The notes beneath the pieces were generated by a model that searched no databases, was not told the origin of the DNA, and saw nothing but the letters and a program-made list of their open reading frames with translations. This document shows, in pieces, positions 3 through 8,984 of a stretch of 54,700 bases of DNA (its first letter is position 1; each line of letters begins with the position of its first letter). This DNA comes from Actinomycetales bacterium (lineage in GTDB: Bacteria > Actinomycetota > Actinomycetes > Nanopelagicales > Nanopelagicaceae). A program made the position numbers and the translations under genes. The stretch lies in assembly GCA_018969585.1 (NCBI GenBank), contig JAGWYB010000006.1, positions 1 to 54,700 of the forward strand, read 5' to 3'.

Positions 3-83
3 ATTGAAGAGGGTGGTCGCCGGATGGTGCGAAAGGATGATAAAAAATCGATGGCCCGTTACTACCTAATTAAAGCCATTTAG
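3..83 (+). CDS. 3' end of an unidentified CDS truncated by the window edge (…IEEGGRRMVRKDDKKSMARYYLIKAI*)
   Basis: Open frame from the window start to TAG at 81-83; convergent with and overlapping the corA stop. Confidence 0.4.
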   Translation: MEEGGRRMVRKDDKKSMARYYLIKAI

Positions 84-1041
84 CGCGTTTGAATTTGTAG
101 AACAAAACACCACAAATTATTGTTATTGTGCCAACCACGATGAAATAGCCATATCGCCACTGTAGTTCAGGCATGAATTTAAAGTTCATTCCATAAAGTC
201 CTGCAATCATGGTTGGAAAAGCTGCAAGCGCAACCCATGCGGAAATTCGGCGCACCTCTACATTCTGTTGGACTTGCACTTGTGCAAGATCAGCTTGAAG
301 TGCTGCAGTTAATAGGGCGTCCATGCCAATCGCGTGATCACATGCTCGAGATACTTCATCCAACTTATCTTGAAAAAATGCTACCAGTTCAACTGGATAG
401 ATATTTTTGAACTCGCCAACAAGCTTTTGCAATGCAGATACTAAAGGACCAATGGCATGCCTGTATTCAATCACTTCTCGCTTGAGCAAATAGATTGTTT
501 TTGAATGAGAGGTTTGAGAATCAGAAAAAACTAAGGTTTCGATATTAATGACATCCCGTTCGAGTTCCACAGCAATTTTTGAATATTCATTAATCACACA
601 GTTGAGAACTCCATAAAGGACAGCGTAGGGGCCGAGTTTCAGGAAATTCGGTTTTGATTCAAGACTTGATCGCACGGGCACCAAAGGACTTCCATCTCCG
701 TGGCGAACAGTAATAATGAAATCATCGTTCATAAAGCAAATTAATTCACCTGTGGTCACTGAACTTATGGAGTCATCGTAGAAAACAGTGCGCATGACAA
801 ATGTGACCACATTGTCATTGATTTCGATTCTTGCCCGTTGGCGAGCGTTCACGGCGTCTGCTCGCGCAGTCTCATGGAGAGGAAAGGAACCAAGGACCCG
901 ATTGAGCTCAATGTCAGAAGGTTCGGCTAGGCCTACCCAAGCAAAAGCTGTGCTGTCGTGGCTTGCAACACTAAGGGCTTCAAAAGTGCCAACATTTACA
1001 TCTCGAACCCCTGCACGGTAAATTGCGTGATCAACGATCAT
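70..1041 (-). CDS. corA: CorA-family magnesium/divalent cation transporter
   Basis: 323 aa; YGMNF signature (AGLYGMNFKFMPEL) and C-terminal TM segments. Confidence 0.9.
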   Translation of the reverse strand: MIVDHAIYRAGVRDVNVGTFEALSVASHDSTAFAWVGLAEPSDIELNRVLGSFPLHETARADAVNARQRARIEINDNVVTFVMRTVFYDDSISSVTTGELICFMNDDFIITVRHGDGSPLVPVRSSLESKPNFLKLGPYAVLYGVLNCVINEYSKIAVELERDVINIETLVFSDSQTSHSKTIYLLKREVIEYRHAIGPLVSALQKLVGEFKNIYPVELVAFFQDKLDEVSRACDHAIGMDALLTAALQADLAQVQVQQNVEVRRISAWVALAAFPTMIAGLYGMNFKFMPELQWRYGYFIVVGTITIICGVLFYKFKRAKWL

Positions 1042-3860: not shown

Positions 3861-4955
3861 TTAAAGAGTTTGCACCACTTCTCGCAAACGAAGCGAATTC
3901 GAAAGAAGGTCGCCATCATGGAGAGCGCCTCCAATAAGAATTGTTATATCTCTACCAAAGTCACTAACCATTTCTGGCGCTCTTTCAATTTTCATGCCTC
4001 CGGCTAATGCCGGAGAAGCTTTCTTGATATTCCCCAGACCTGAAAGGCAAGAGGCGACCACAGATTTACATTCTTCAAGAGTGAAACTAAATCGTCCGCC
4101 ATGATTCGGAAAGATAGAAATATCAGCTCCAGAAAGGCGCATTAAAATTCCAAAAGTAATTGCATGGCTAAAGCCGTGATTTGGATTCATAACGTAAGTT
4201 CCGATCAGCGCAGGGTGACCAATAACAGGAAGCGCTACCGAATCATCATCGGCGATTGCACGCATTGCGTCGTATCCACAGATACCTGGAAGTAGCAAAA
4301 GCGCACCACAACCGACTTTTTTTGCAAATCTCGCTCCATCGAAAAATTCTTCAGTTGGTCGATTGAGGCTAGGCGCATAAACCGCGTTTCTATTGAATTT
4401 TGAGTTCGCACTATTTATTGCATCGGCGACTTGTTCTACTCGATCTTTCCAAAGCGCCCACGGTTGATTAGCAAGACTGTGATCATCTTTGATGATGTCA
4501 ATGCCACCCTCAACGAGAGTCGTTGCCATATTCGCTAATTCCTTCGAGCTCAACCCCATCGGCTTCAATGCCGTCATAAGCATCGGTCGATTTTCGATTC
4601 CTAGCTGTTTACGTAAACCAGATACTCCAAATCGTGGACCCTTTAATTTATTCAGGAAGCTCTCTGGGAATTTAATGTCAACAATTTGCACTCCTTGAAA
4701 GAGTGAGATATTTCCAAATAATAGATTAAGAAATTGGGTTAGTTCGCCGCCAGCAATTCCGTCGTTGTAAGAGATTGAAACTTTAGTTTTACTCTTCGAA
4801 ATTTCTACTATAGATTCAACTTTTCCAACAATCTCATCTTGAATCCATTTTGGAACTAACTTATAGGGAAATTCGATTGTCTGCTCTACCCGGATAGCCT
4901 CAATTACATCATCTGCAGCATCTGAGTCGATGAGATAAGTAATTAAAAATGCCAT
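3861..4955 (-). CDS. RuBisCO-like protein (form IV), candidate 5-methylthioribulose-1-phosphate isomerase; ORF extends to 5003, start at 4955 (MAFLITYLI) more likely
   Basis: RuBisCO large-subunit features: LKPMGLS, GGIDIIKDDHSL, FPNHGGRFSF, DITILIGGALHDGD; neighbours metY and a cupin. Confidence 0.85.
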   Translation of the reverse strand: MAFLITYLIDSDAADDVIEAIRVEQTIEFPYKLVPKWIQDEIVGKVESIVEISKSKTKVSISYNDGIAGGELTQFLNLLFGNISLFQGVQIVDIKFPESFLNKLKGPRFGVSGLRKQLGIENRPMLMTALKPMGLSSKELANMATTLVEGGIDIIKDDHSLANQPWALWKDRVEQVADAINSANSKFNRNAVYAPSLNRPTEEFFDGARFAKKVGCGALLLLPGICGYDAMRAIADDDSVALPVIGHPALIGTYVMNPNHGFSHAITFGILMRLSGADISIFPNHGGRFSFTLEECKSVVASCLSGLGNIKKASPALAGGMKIERAPEMVSDFGRDITILIGGALHDGDLLSNSLRLREVVQTL

Positions 4956-5027
4956 GCGAAATGATATCGGAGGAAATTTATAAGGTAATCCTGAGGAGCA
5001 CATAAGAATTTCCCATGATAAAATTCG

Positions 5028-6329
5028 TTGATGTCAGATCGTGAATTTGGATTCAAAACCAAATCTCTACATGCCGGAACACTGCCCGATGCAGCAACGG
5101 GATCGCGTACGGTTCCGATTTATCAGTCGACTGCGTTTGTCTTTGAAGATACTAAAGATGCGGGCGACCTTTTCGCCCTCCGGAAATATGGAAATATCTA
5201 CAGCAGAATCGCCAACCCGACTGTTGCTGCGCTTGAGGAAAAAGTTGCTGCCTTAGAGGGCGGTTTGGGCGCTGTTGCAACTTCATCGGGTTTATCAGCC
5301 CAGTTCCTTCTGTTCGCAGCGTTGACTAGTAGCGGCGACCATATCGTTTCCTCATCAAATCTTTACGGTGGAACTATTACTCAATTAGATGTCACCCTAA
5401 AAAAGTTTGGCGTAGATACAACATTTGTTTCAAGTGATGATCCAAAAGATTTTGCTAAAGCAATCAAGCCAAACACCAAATTACTTTTAACAGAAGTCAT
5501 TTCCAATCCTTCAAATCATGTTGCTGACCTTGAGGGCTTAGCAAAGGTTGCACATGAAAGCGACATACCCTTAGTAGTCGATTCCACATTAACAACTCCC
5601 TATTTGGTGCAACCTTTTGATTATGGGGCGGACATAGTTATTCACAGTCTCACTAAATTTATGGGAGGTCACGGAACAACTCTCGGTGGAATAGTTGTGG
5701 AATCTGGAAAATTTAATTGGGGAAATGGGAAATTTCCTTCTATGCTCGAAAAGGTTCCTCATTATGGAGATATTTCTTGGTGGGGAAACTTTGGGGAGTA
5801 CGGTTTGCTTACGAAATTGCGAGCAGAGCAGCTACGAGATATCGGAGCATCTCTAACTCCAATTGCCGCATTTCTCCTAATTCAAGGTATTGAAACTCTC
5901 GCACAGCGAATGGATGATCATGTGTCGAACGCTAGAAAAGTTGCAGAGTTTCTAAATTCAGATCCGCGCGTCAGCTGGGTTAACTATTGCGGATTACCAA
6001 GTCATCCGCATGCCGATCGAGTTAAAAAGTACCTTCCTCGAGGCGCAGGCGCAGTATTTAGTTTTGGCGTAAAAGGTGACCGAAGCGCTGCGGAAAAATT
6101 TATTAATTCAGTTCAATTAGCCTCTCACCTTGCAAATGTTGGTGACGTAAGAACGTTAGTTATTCACCCAGCTTCGACCACCCACCGCCAACTTTCAGAT
6201 AGTCAATTGGAAGATGCTGGAGTCAAGCCGGATTTGATACGTATAAGCGTGGGACTTGAAGACGTTGAGGATATTATTTGGGACATCGACCAAGCCTTAG
6301 AGGCAGCCACTGGAATGAGTTCAAAATGA
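5028..6329 (+). CDS. metY: O-acetylhomoserine aminocarboxypropyltransferase/sulfhydrylase
   Basis: 433 aa Cys/Met metabolism PLP enzyme; KTKSLHAG, PIYQSTAFVF, HSLTKFMGGHGTTLGG. Confidence 0.9.
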   Translation: MMSDREFGFKTKSLHAGTLPDAATGSRTVPIYQSTAFVFEDTKDAGDLFALRKYGNIYSRIANPTVAALEEKVAALEGGLGAVATSSGLSAQFLLFAALTSSGDHIVSSSNLYGGTITQLDVTLKKFGVDTTFVSSDDPKDFAKAIKPNTKLLLTEVISNPSNHVADLEGLAKVAHESDIPLVVDSTLTTPYLVQPFDYGADIVIHSLTKFMGGHGTTLGGIVVESGKFNWGNGKFPSMLEKVPHYGDISWWGNFGEYGLLTKLRAEQLRDIGASLTPIAAFLLIQGIETLAQRMDDHVSNARKVAEFLNSDPRVSWVNYCGLPSHPHADRVKKYLPRGAGAVFSFGVKGDRSAAEKFINSVQLASHLANVGDVRTLVIHPASTTHRQLSDSQLEDAGVKPDLIRISVGLEDVEDIIWDIDQALEAATGMSSK

Positions 6330-6799
6330 TTTGGAGCGAGCCAACAAATTTCGAACTTTCACAAATCATTAATGGTTCGAAAAATATTGCGGTTATTGGA
6401 GCTTCGAGTGACACCTCGAAGGCTTCGTTTTTCGTTATGACTTATCTTGTCGGCTCAACTAACTACAAACTTTTTCCAATAAATCCAAAAGAGGAAAATA
6501 TTCTTGGCATCAAGGTTTACAAATCCCTAAAAGAGGTACCAGAAGCAATTGACGTATGTGTTGTATTCCGCAGACCGGACGCGCTAGATGCCGTTTTAGA
6601 TGAGGTTCTCGAAGTAGGCGCAAAAGTTTTGTGGATGCAACTTGGCATTAGAAATGATGCGGTAGCAGTGCGAGGAACTTCGAGCGGAATTAAAGTTGTT
6701 CAAGATCGTTGCATAAAGATTGAGCACGCAAGATTTCATGGGGGGCTTCATTTGGCCGGTTTTGATACAGGAGTAATTTCTTCAAAGAGATTGAAGTAA
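6326..6799 (+). CDS. CoA-binding domain protein (YccU-like)
   Basis: IAVIGASSDTSKASFFVMTYL, DVCVVFRRPDA, VLWMQLGI; ATGA overlap with metY. Confidence 0.8.
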   Translation: MIWSEPTNFELSQIINGSKNIAVIGASSDTSKASFFVMTYLVGSTNYKLFPINPKEENILGIKVYKSLKEVPEAIDVCVVFRRPDALDAVLDEVLEVGAKVLWMQLGIRNDAVAVRGTSSGIKVVQDRCIKIEHARFHGGLHLAGFDTGVISSKRLK

Positions 6800-6804
6800 T
6801 CAAT

Positions 6805-7287
6805 ATGAATCATGAAGACGCATTCCTGCCAATAAACCTTGCCCAGAGCGAGCCTTACCGGTGGCAAGGCGTAAGTGAGCATGTTTATAAAGCTGATGGT
6901 GATGTTTCGTCGTTTAAAGATGTTACTCGAAGAAAGCTATTCATCGATCCAGAGAAATCTGGAATTGAACTTCGTTATTTTGAGATCGCTCCCACCGGAC
7001 ATACAACTTTAGAGAAACATGACCATATTCATCTCGTAATACCCATTAGAGGCGCGGGATCCTGTTTAGTTGACAATAAATTAATCAAACTTGAGATAAA
7101 TGATGTTGTCCATGTTCCTTCTTGGGCTTGGCACCAATTCAGGGCGAGCGATGATGACCATCTTGGTTTTCTCTGTCTTGTGACCTGTGAACGAGATAGA
7201 CCAACTTTGCCTACCAAAGAAGATTTAGAAATTCTCAAAAAAGACCCTTCAGTAGCTGATTTTATTCGGGCGCATCAAATCTCTTGA
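6805..7287 (+). CDS. Cupin protein; candidate 1-methylthio-xylulose-5-phosphate methylsulfurylase
   Basis: Cupin motifs GHTTLEKHDHIHLVIPIRGAGSCLV and VPSWAWHQFRA; genomic context with RLP and metY. Confidence 0.75.
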   Translation: MNHEDAFLPINLAQSEPYRWQGVSEHVYKADGDVSSFKDVTRRKLFIDPEKSGIELRYFEIAPTGHTTLEKHDHIHLVIPIRGAGSCLVDNKLIKLEINDVVHVPSWAWHQFRASDDDHLGFLCLVTCERDRPTLPTKEDLEILKKDPSVADFIRAHQIS

Positions 7288-7326: not shown

Positions 7327-8541
7327 GTGAAAATGCGTAAATCAGGAATTCGGAAGTTTCGCTCCTTAAGGGTGCTTTCCATTACCGCCATCCTTGCAAT
7401 TGGTTTGTTTCAACTTTCATCCGCAACCCAAGCTTCTGAGGCTCTTAAGAAAAAATTAACAGATATTCCCGAGTTCGCAGCAGGTCAGTTAGCAGAGGTA
7501 AAAAAGAAATCCAAATCAAATATCAATAAGCACTCAATGCGCATGAAGAAAGCGCATTTACCTACCGCTCCTAATGGTGGGACTGACGACTACCGTTGTT
7601 TCCTACTCGATCCCAAGATAAAAGAAGATTCGATTCTCCGTTCAATAGAGTTTATTCCGCAAAAGAAAGACTACGTCCATCACGCCATTATGTTTAGAGT
7701 CTCTGAAGCCAACATTCCTGAGGCTATTGAAAAGGATAAATCTGGAATCGGGTGGCCCTGTTTTGGCGGTTCCGGACTAGGAGGGATGTTCTCTTCGTTT
7801 GTCACATCGCCTTGGATAAGCGCTTGGGCGCCCGGAAGAGGAATAGATATTTCGCCAGAGGGTTATGGAATTCCTTTTAGAAAAGGAGAACGCCTCGTAC
7901 TGCAGATTCATTACAACTTGCTCGCAGCAAATGGTGGAACTGTTGAAACTGATAGATCGCGGATAGTTATGGAAGCTGTTCCAGCAAGTTCTACAAATGT
8001 AAAACCTTTGACTATCGAACTCTTCGCCGCGCCAGTCGAATTAGCTTGTCCATCAGGAGTAACAGGACCATTATGCGATCGAAATGCTTCACTAAGAGAT
8101 CTGGCAACCCGAACTGATAAAACTAGTTTTCTGGAGGCGCAAGCTATTGCGGCGATTTGTGGAAAGAATCCTGCAAAGCCAATCCCTTCGCTCGCCAACT
8201 CTTGTGATCGAATTATTAGATCAGATTTCAAAATAATAGCGGCTGGCCCGCATATGCACCTTCTTGGGAAGAAGTTGAAGATGACGCTGAACCCCGGAAC
8301 GGAAAGGGAAAAATCGATTCTCAATGTTGAAAATTACGATTTTGACGATCAATCACCAATCGTTTTAACTGAACCTATAAACGTAGTTTCAGGCGATGTA
8401 ATCCGAATTGAATGTGTTCATGATCCATCTCTTAGACAAGTACTTCCAGCGCTAAAGTTCTTGCCACCTAGATATGTCACATGGGGAGAAGGATCCTCGG
8501 ATGAAATGTGTCTCGGCGTGCTATCTGTCACGAGGGATTGA
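7327..8541 (+). CDS. Secreted copper type II ascorbate-dependent monooxygenase-like protein (PHM/DBH family)
   Basis: Signal peptide; apparent Cu ligands in YVHHAIMF, LQIHYN, AAGPHMHLLGKKLKM and SSDEMC match the PHM-type pattern. Confidence 0.75.
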   Translation: MKMRKSGIRKFRSLRVLSITAILAIGLFQLSSATQASEALKKKLTDIPEFAAGQLAEVKKKSKSNINKHSMRMKKAHLPTAPNGGTDDYRCFLLDPKIKEDSILRSIEFIPQKKDYVHHAIMFRVSEANIPEAIEKDKSGIGWPCFGGSGLGGMFSSFVTSPWISAWAPGRGIDISPEGYGIPFRKGERLVLQIHYNLLAANGGTVETDRSRIVMEAVPASSTNVKPLTIELFAAPVELACPSGVTGPLCDRNASLRDLATRTDKTSFLEAQAIAAICGKNPAKPIPSLANSCDRIIRSDFKIIAAGPHMHLLGKKLKMTLNPGTEREKSILNVENYDFDDQSPIVLTEPINVVSGDVIRIECVHDPSLRQVLPALKFLPPRYVTWGEGSSDEMCLGVLSVTRD

Positions 8542-8543
8542 TT

Positions 8544-8984
8544 ATGAATTTTGATAATTCTATTTCAAAAGAGCTGCCTAGAAGATCTCTCCTTTGTGGA
8601 CTTGGGTTGATTGCTCTCGGGATGCTCCCGAGCGCCGCTATTGCATCAGGCAATGTTAAATTATTGAGTGATGGGAAAGTTGAAGTCTTGCTATCGAAAA
8701 ATACTGCTCTTAGAAAAGTTGGAGGGGTAATTCAATTCAATGATAAACAGGGTAAATCTATTGCTCTTATCCGCACAACTCAGTCGGCCACGGGTTTTCG
8801 AGCCATTAATCTAAGTTGCACTCATCAAGGTGTGACTGTTGAGCGAACTGATAATGGTTGGCTCTGTAAAGATGGGCATCAAGCGACATATGCAGCAGAC
8901 GGTAAGGTTTTATCTGGACCTGCCAAATTTGACCTTCGCTCGATACCGGTGAAAGCAAGTAAGTCAAAAGTCACTGTCGGTTAG
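8544..8984 (+). CDS. Tat-type exported Rieske-like [2Fe-2S] protein
   Basis: LPRRSLLCGLGLIALGM twin-arginine signal; CTH-x13-CKDGH; AADGKVLSGPA tail typical of Rieske domains. Confidence 0.7.
   Translation: MNFDNSISKELPRRSLLCGLGLIALGMLPSAAIASGNVKLLSDGKVEVLLSKNTALRKVGGVIQFNDKQGKSIALIRTTQSATGFRAINLSCTHQGVTVERTDNGWLCKDGHQATYAADGKVLSGPAKFDLRSIPVKASKSKVTVG

What the first reader, a model, noticed from the sequence alone, without database searches (positions are those of the whole stretch)
3861..7287. RuBisCO-like protein + MetY + CoA-binding protein + cupin: a candidate MTA-isoprenoid shunt
Sequence: a divergent pair has a form IV RuBisCO-like protein (LKPMGLS, GGIDIIKDDHSL, FPNHGGRF) on the minus strand, and metY, a CoA-binding protein gene and a cupin gene (GHTTLEKHDHIHLVIP, WAWHQFRA) on the plus strand. 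Established: in Rhodospirillum rubrum an RLP converts 5-methylthioribulose-1-P to 1-methylthioxylulose-5-P, a cupin releases methanethiol to give DXP, and an O-acetylhomoserine sulfhydrylase re-assimilates the methanethiol. Inference: the same shunt operates in this streamlined actinobacterium, linking polyamine/SAM by-product recycling to isoprenoid precursor supply. No MTA phosphorylase or mtnA is visible in the window.
Basis: partly seen in the sequence, partly recalled or inferred. Interest (0 to 1): 0.75.

Follow-up and report, generated by a model that had tools for sequence, protein, structure and literature searches.

The report
Actinobacterial MTA-to-isoprenoid sulfur salvage cassette
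A streamlined actinobacterium carries a compact gene cassette that very probably turns a toxic by-product of S-adenosylmethionine use into methionine plus an isoprenoid precursor, and comparison with relatives shows that the RuBisCO-like enzyme at its heart has repeatedly swapped partners between a small cupin enzyme and an unstudied two-part transketolase-like enzyme.

Summary
Window 3861-7287 holds a RuBisCO-like protein (RLP) gene divergent from a tight metY-CoA_binding_2-cupin operon. No activity was tested.

(1) The cupin is very rare in the phylum (1 of 397 Actinomycetota sampled).
(2) In 58 of 80 related loci the same RLP type sits beside a split transketolase, not the cupin. The two partners are nearly mutually exclusive, and cupin-linked RLPs are not one clade (p-AU 6e-6), so partners were exchanged more than once.
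(3) All 53 RLP-linked transketolase C-chains checked lack a His and an Asp of ordinary split transketolase.
(4) metY-CoA_binding is a common pair with its own C-terminal tail; it recurs with the cupin in two other genomes, and CoA_binding and cupin are fused in a third.

Filed as a new variant of the MTA-isoprenoid shunt; the split-transketolase branch is the more novel lead.

The parts
3861..4955 (-). RuBisCO-like protein, KDDH (DeepYkr-like) type; predicted 5-methylthioribulose-1-P 1,3-isomerase
   Evidence: start chosen by homology with L024
4956..5030 (.). short intergenic region between the divergent RLP and metY genes, presumed to hold both promoters
   Evidence: no Rfam riboswitch; promoter scan uninformative
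5031..6329 (+). metY, O-acetylhomoserine sulfhydrylase; predicted to capture methanethiol as methionine
   Evidence: TIGR01326 587.7 bits, cut-off 495.1
6326..6799 (+). CoA_binding_2 protein of the MetY-linked subfamily with C-terminal tail GGLHLAGFDTGVISSKR
   Evidence: PF13380 E 2.3e-37; metY pairing and tail; ATGA overlap with metY
6805..7287 (+). cupin, predicted 1-methylthioxylulose-5-P methylsulfurylase
   Evidence: 3jzv/Rru_A2000 E 2e-38, 47% identity, invariant H72/H74/H76/H110/C124

Best explanation
The cassette encodes the distinctive steps of an MTA-isoprenoid shunt in a streamlined actinobacterium. Elsewhere in the genome, MTA is probably deaminated to methylthioinosine and phosphorolysed to methylthioribose-1-P, which MtnA isomerises to 5-methylthioribulose-1-P. 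The window RLP then isomerises this to 1-methylthioxylulose-5-P. The cupin removes the methylthio group with a thiol, giving 1-deoxyxylulose-5-P, and methanethiol is freed from the mixed disulfide. MetY joins methanethiol to O-acetylhomoserine to make methionine. The CoA-binding protein works with MetY and secondarily with the cupin. The cassette probably arose by exchange: the ancestral partner of this RLP lineage was a split transketolase-like enzyme, replaced here by the metY-CoA_binding-cupin module. Shown by sequence: gene content, family membership, operon structure, partner exchange. Inferred from characterised homologues: the reactions. Inferred only: the thiol and the role of the CoA-binding protein.
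For: RLP: KDDH motif, best PDB hit 3qfw, split from MtnW with 96% SH-aLRT. Cupin: 47-49% identity to Rru_A2000 and 3kgz with invariant metal-site histidines and Cys. mtnA and a methylthioinosine phosphorylase above cut-off, with a deaminase-like gene, on contig C21. Same MetY-CoA_binding-cupin set in G466 and G469, both of which also have a KDDH RLP; RLP-cupin operon in G784. The reactions of the homologues are established in R. rubrum and R. palustris (PMC4958253, PMC5893883). Partner exchange.
Against: No biochemical test. The known cupin uses glutathione, which actinobacteria generally lack; a likely mshC suggests mycothiol instead. An aldolase/dehydrogenase fused gene behind mtnA may divert MTRu-1P. 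metY-CoA_binding pairs exist without RLP or cupin, so MetY may serve general methionine synthesis. dxr, metX and MTA-producing enzymes were not searched.
Confidence: 0.8

Rival explanations
1. The cassette is mainly a detoxification route: RLP and cupin clear MTA-derived sugar phosphates and the methanethiol is lost or used elsewhere, while MetY and the CoA-binding protein serve ordinary sulfide-based homocysteine synthesis and are neighbours by convenience.
For: metY-CoA_binding pairs are common without RLP or cupin. L024 has RLP and CoA_binding-cupin but no metY beside them. In R. palustris part of the methanethiol is released.
Against: MetY-CoA_binding-cupin recurs in G466 and, with another gene order, in G469, and in the window metY and cupin are in one tightly packed operon.
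Confidence: 0.13
2. The RLP has another activity (MtnW-type enolase or a sugar-acid RLP) and the cupin is an unrelated oxygenase or isomerase.
For: NCBIfam's best model for the RLP is the MtnW enolase (211 bits), though far below its cut-off of 409. Small cupins are functionally diverse.
Against: KDDH instead of KDDE, tree position apart from MtnW, cupin match to Rru_A2000 about 30 orders of magnitude better than to other cupins, and presence of mtnA.
Confidence: 0.04
3. The window is a contaminant or chimeric contig, so the cassette belongs to another organism.
For: The assembly is 81% complete with 3% contamination, and none of the 23 same-genus genomes searched has the RLP or the cupin.
Against: The gene directly downstream of the cupin is 67-72% identical to a gene of four genus members, in one of which the same Rieske gene follows. 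The RLP groups with Nanopelagicales RLPs. Base composition is even along the contig.
Confidence: 0.03

Closest known systems
MTA-isoprenoid shunt of Rhodospirillum rubrum (Rru_A1998 RLP, Rru_A2000 cupin, Rru_A0774/A0784 OAH sulfhydrylase) and Rhodopseudomonas palustris (RPA2169, RPA2170)
   Same: KDDH-type RLP with a methylsulfurylase-clade cupin, MtnA upstream and an OAH sulfhydrylase downstream.
   Different: metY and a CoA-binding protein lie in the cassette; entry looks like methylthioinosine phosphorolysis; the thiol is probably not glutathione; the RLP nests among transketolase-linked actinobacterial RLPs.
RLP plus split transketolase operons (mtnA, aldolase/dehydrogenase, TktN, TktC, RLP) in many phyla; undescribed in the papers held here
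   Same: Same RLP type (KDDH); the sister RLPs of the window RLP are in such operons.
   Different: The window genome has no RLP-type TktC; cupin, metY and CoA_binding stand in its place.
Split-gene transketolase of Carboxydothermus hydrogenoformans (6yaj, 6yak)
   Same: Closest solved relative of the RLP-linked TktN and TktC: two chains, catalytic Glu in the AEQN motif conserved.
   Different: All 53 RLP-linked C-chains have FLPGxTT-PGG in place of THAGLTVGEDG, losing a His and an Asp. Not present in the window genome.
DHAP shunt for 5'-deoxynucleosides (MtnA plus class II aldolase)
   Same: mtnA overlaps a gene with a class II aldolase domain in this genome.
   Different: Here the aldolase is fused to a short-chain dehydrogenase and lies on another contig from the RLP; substrate unknown.

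Membership tests
MTA-isoprenoid shunt | MTA-to-MTR-1P phosphorylase | tested here: met
   Phosphorylase on C21 passes NF006599 (methylthioinosine phosphorylase, 247.8 vs 223) but not TIGR01694 MTAP (232.3 vs 274.9); deaminase-like amidohydrolase beside it
MTA-isoprenoid shunt | MtnA isomerase | tested here: met
   TIGR00512 389.7 bits, cut-off 279
MTA-isoprenoid shunt | DeepYkr-type RLP, distinct from MtnW | tested here: met
   KDDH motif; tree split from MtnW at 96% SH-aLRT; that 3qfw is R. palustris Rlp1 is own knowledge
MTA-isoprenoid shunt | Methylsulfurylase-clade cupin | tested here: met
   47% identity to Rru_A2000 with invariant His and Cys residues
MTA-isoprenoid shunt | O-acetylhomoserine sulfhydrylase to capture methanethiol | tested here: met
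   TIGR01326 above cut-off; its use of methanethiol here is inferred
MTA-isoprenoid shunt | Glutathione as thiol co-substrate | tested here: inconclusive
   Likely mshC, 470 bits vs cut-off 485.1, suggests mycothiol; glutathione genes not searched
MTA-isoprenoid shunt | MEP pathway downstream of DXP (dxr) | not tested
MTA-isoprenoid shunt | Enzyme activities on MTRu-1P and MTXu-5P | not testable with these tools
   Needs biochemistry
Universal methionine salvage (MtnW branch) | RLP above the MtnW cut-off | tested here: not met
   211.5 vs 409 and 165.7 vs 513.6 bits; only one RLP in the genome
RLP plus split transketolase operon | RLP-type TktN/TktC in the genome | tested here: not met
   No TktC match at E 1e-30 in G000, although the RLP nests among such RLPs

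The most novel reading that the evidence does not exclude
KDDH-type RLPs across many bacterial phyla mostly work with a dedicated split ThDP enzyme (TktN/TktC with a remodelled active site) that consumes the RLP product 1-methylthioxylulose-5-P, perhaps cleaving it to glyceraldehyde-3-P and expelling methanethiol from the ThDP adduct. This would be an undescribed oxygen-independent methionine salvage route. The window cassette is a derived form in which that enzyme was replaced by the cupin, with the CoA-binding protein (or CoA itself) handling the thiol chemistry in place of glutathione.
Probability: 0.35. Interest if true: 0.85.

Novelty: new variant of a known kind. Interest (0 to 1): 0.62.

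Why it matters
It places the MTA-isoprenoid shunt, established by experiment in purple bacteria, in a genome-reduced actinobacterium that probably uses mycothiol, and shows a recurring MetY-CoA_binding-cupin module that suggests how methanethiol is handled without glutathione. More broadly, the repeated exchange of cupin for split transketolase around the same RLP makes a clear prediction for an unassigned enzyme pair found in Actinomycetota, Bacillota, Chloroflexota, Spirochaetota, Planctomycetota, Nitrospirota and others. If right, it bears on how anaerobes and streamlined bacteria recycle methionine sulfur and release methanethiol.

Tried and rejected
MtnW or another RLP activity: rejected by motif, model cut-offs and tree. 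Contaminant contig: made unlikely by genus-type neighbours. The CoA-binding protein as specific to the cupin: weakened, because seven metY-CoA_binding pairs with no cupin or RLP nearby were found, plus one with a weaker MetY relative; the fusion in L024 keeps a second role alive. Window, L024 and L043 as separate cupin acquisitions: not supported, since one clade of the three is not rejected (p-AU 0.52). Riboswitch near metY: none at Rfam gathering thresholds. Promoter scan: fewer hits than shuffles, uninformative. Viral contigs: no relative. Pseudomonadota sample: one cupin genome in 399. Literature on a CoA-binding protein with MetY: one lead was a false match. No held paper combines transketolase, RuBisCO-like protein and methylthioribulose.

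Full report
1. The observation. The ORF list shows one minus-strand and three plus-strand genes in window 3861-7287. Pfam and NCBIfam identify a RuBisCO large-chain homologue, an O-acetylhomoserine sulfhydrylase (TIGR01326, 587.7 bits, cut-off 495.1), a CoA_binding_2 protein and a Cupin_2 protein. The plus-strand genes form a tight operon: the metY stop and CoA-binding start overlap as ATGA at 6326-6329, and the cupin starts 5 nt after the CoA-binding stop. The RLP is divergent; its best start by homology with L024 is ATG 4955.

2. What the RLP is. Its best PDB match is 3qfw (202 bits), then 4nas and the MtnW enolases. It carries K-D-D-H where MtnW has K-D-D-E; KDDH is found in nearly all of the 80 related loci. 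In a tree of 86 RLPs the KDDH RLPs are separated from B. subtilis MtnW and 4nas with 96% SH-aLRT. That 3qfw is the R. palustris DeepYkr protein is from my own knowledge. R. palustris Rlp1 and R. rubrum Rru_A1998 are experimentally supported 5-methylthioribulose-1-P isomerases (PMC5893883, PMC4958253).

3. What the cupin is. The three best PDB matches are 3kgz, 3jzv (labelled Rru_A2000) and 3ibm, E 6e-39 to 2e-30; the next is at 5e-5. Rru_A2000 is the R. rubrum MTXu-5P sulfurylase. Identity is 47% to Rru_A2000 and 49% to 3kgz. Across eleven cupins of this clade H72, H74, H76, H110 and C124 (window numbering) are invariant. The cupin is rare: 1 of 397 sampled Actinomycetota genomes (this one only, apart from three partial 36-38% matches) and 1 of 399 sampled Pseudomonadota at E 1e-20.

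4. The rest of the pathway. The genome (1.096 Mb in 67 contigs, 81% complete) has mtnA on contig C21 (389.7 bits, cut-off 279). About 5 kb away is a phosphorylase that passes the methylthioinosine-phosphorylase cut-off and fails the MtnP one, followed by an amidohydrolase related to MTA/SAH deaminases. This suggests MTA to methylthioinosine to MTR-1P. mtnA overlaps an aldolase/short-chain-dehydrogenase fusion, so MTRu-1P may also enter a DHAP-shunt-like branch. The same stretch holds an ABC transporter of the nucleoside type, cytidine deaminase, thymidine phosphorylase and deoC: a nucleoside-use island (names of these from reading the sequences). A likely mshC (470 bits, cut-off 485.1; the next hit, at the level of CysS, scores 276) suggests mycothiol is made. 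A review already noted that the thiol of this shunt should differ between lineages, mycothiol in Actinobacteria among them (PMC6302742). I did not search for dxs, dxr, metX, mtnB/C/D/K/X or polyamine genes.

5. Partner exchange. A scan of the species-genome collection with the RLP alignment gave 80 best loci. In 58 of the 80 the RLP lies beside a split transketolase (TktN, TktC), usually directly downstream of it; in Actinomycetota often also with mtnA and the aldolase/dehydrogenase. Family relatives G028 and G031 have that form and no cupin. Where both were checked, a strong cupin match occurs in 6 of 10 genomes without the RLP-type transketolase and in 1 of 42 with it (Fisher p 7e-5; the genomes are related, so this p is only indicative). 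The sample is biased: the search patterns came from an alignment that included two transketolase-linked RLPs. On the tree, window and L024 (99%) nest among transketolase-linked Nanopelagicales RLPs (99%), and the cupin label needs six changes. Holding all cupin-linked RLPs as one clade is rejected (p-AU 5.9e-6); holding window, L024 and L043 together is not (p 0.52). So the exchange happened more than once overall, and possibly once within Actinomycetota. The direction (cupin replacing transketolase) is inferred from the nesting.

6. The RLP-linked transketolase. Compared with the C. hydrogenoformans split transketolase (6yaj), all 53 RLP-linked C-chains keep the catalytic Glu and the H of THQ but have FLPGxTT-PGG in place of THAGLTVGEDG: a His to Leu, an Asp to Gly and a one-residue deletion. 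In transketolases these positions contact the sugar substrate (own knowledge). This marks a specialised enzyme. Because it alternates with a cupin family known to use MTXu-5P, it may act on the same compound; that is inference. No held paper links the two.

7. The CoA-binding protein. Searches of 247 Actinomycetota and 250 Bacillota genomes gave 60 loci for inspection; ten have a MetY relative within 1.5 kb, the window and G469 included. Ten MetY-linked proteins compared (window, L120, L122, L128, L129, L130, L133, L134, L138, L157) share a C-terminal tail like GGLHxxGFDTGxISSxR, which nine unlinked relatives lack. MetY-CoA_binding-cupin occurs in G466 (Actinomycetota; 66, 52 and 53% identity to the window genes) and cupin-MetY-CoA_binding in G469 (Bacillota). 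In L024, CoA_binding (without the tail) and cupin are one 299-aa protein beside the RLP; this rests on one draft genome. The RLP-cupin operon of G784 (Pseudomonadota) has no CoA_binding gene beside it. I conclude that the CoA-binding protein is a MetY partner brought into the shunt with metY. A role for CoA as the thiol, or in handling the mixed disulfide, is possible and testable but not shown.

8. Does the contig belong? The genes at 7327-8984 match an adjacent pair in genus member G002 at 72 and 64%, and the first also matches G006, G023 and G003 at 67-72%. None of 23 genus members searched has the RLP or the cupin, so the cassette is either a gain in this lineage or a survivor.

9. Verdict. 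The window is a new variant of the MTA-isoprenoid shunt, with metY and a CoA-binding protein in the cassette and a probably non-glutathione thiol. The unassigned split-transketolase partner of the same RLP type in many phyla is the more novel lead.

Noticed in passing
L011:1983-5050, L012:2-2954 and most of L024-L103: KDDH-type RLPs of many phyla lie beside a split transketolase (TktN/TktC) whose C-chain has an invariant FLPGxTT-PGG in place of THAGLTVGEDG; function unassigned.
   Followed up: partly
L024:1068-1967 (-): CoA_binding_2 and the methylsulfurylase-type cupin are fused in one 299-aa ORF; the MetY-linked C-terminal tail is missing and there is no metY beside it.
   Followed up: partly
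L128, L129, L130, L133, L134, L138, L157; window 5031-6799: metY-CoA_binding_2 is a widespread gene pair in Actinomycetota and Bacillota, with a subfamily-specific C-terminal tail; role unknown.
   Followed up: partly
L013:3814-19398 (G000 contig C21): Nucleoside-use island: nucleoside-type ABC transporter, methylthioinosine phosphorylase, deaminase, mtnA, aldolase/dehydrogenase fusion, cdd, deoA, aldehyde dehydrogenases, deoC, and a DUF985 cupin.
   Followed up: partly
L113:1432-1902 (G464): A more distant cupin (34% to the window cupin) lies next to a metK-like gene in a Thermoflexales genome that has the RLP but neither RLP-type transketolase nor a close cupin; it may be another methylsulfurylase variant.
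   Followed up: no
window 7327-8984: Pair of a Cu2_monooxygenase-like protein and a Rieske-type protein downstream of the cassette, conserved as a pair in genus member G002.
   Followed up: no
window 70-1041 and L012:2964-3935: A corA-type transporter gene (46% identity) lies close to the RLP in both the window and family member G028, which may hint at a shared ancestral site.
   Followed up: no
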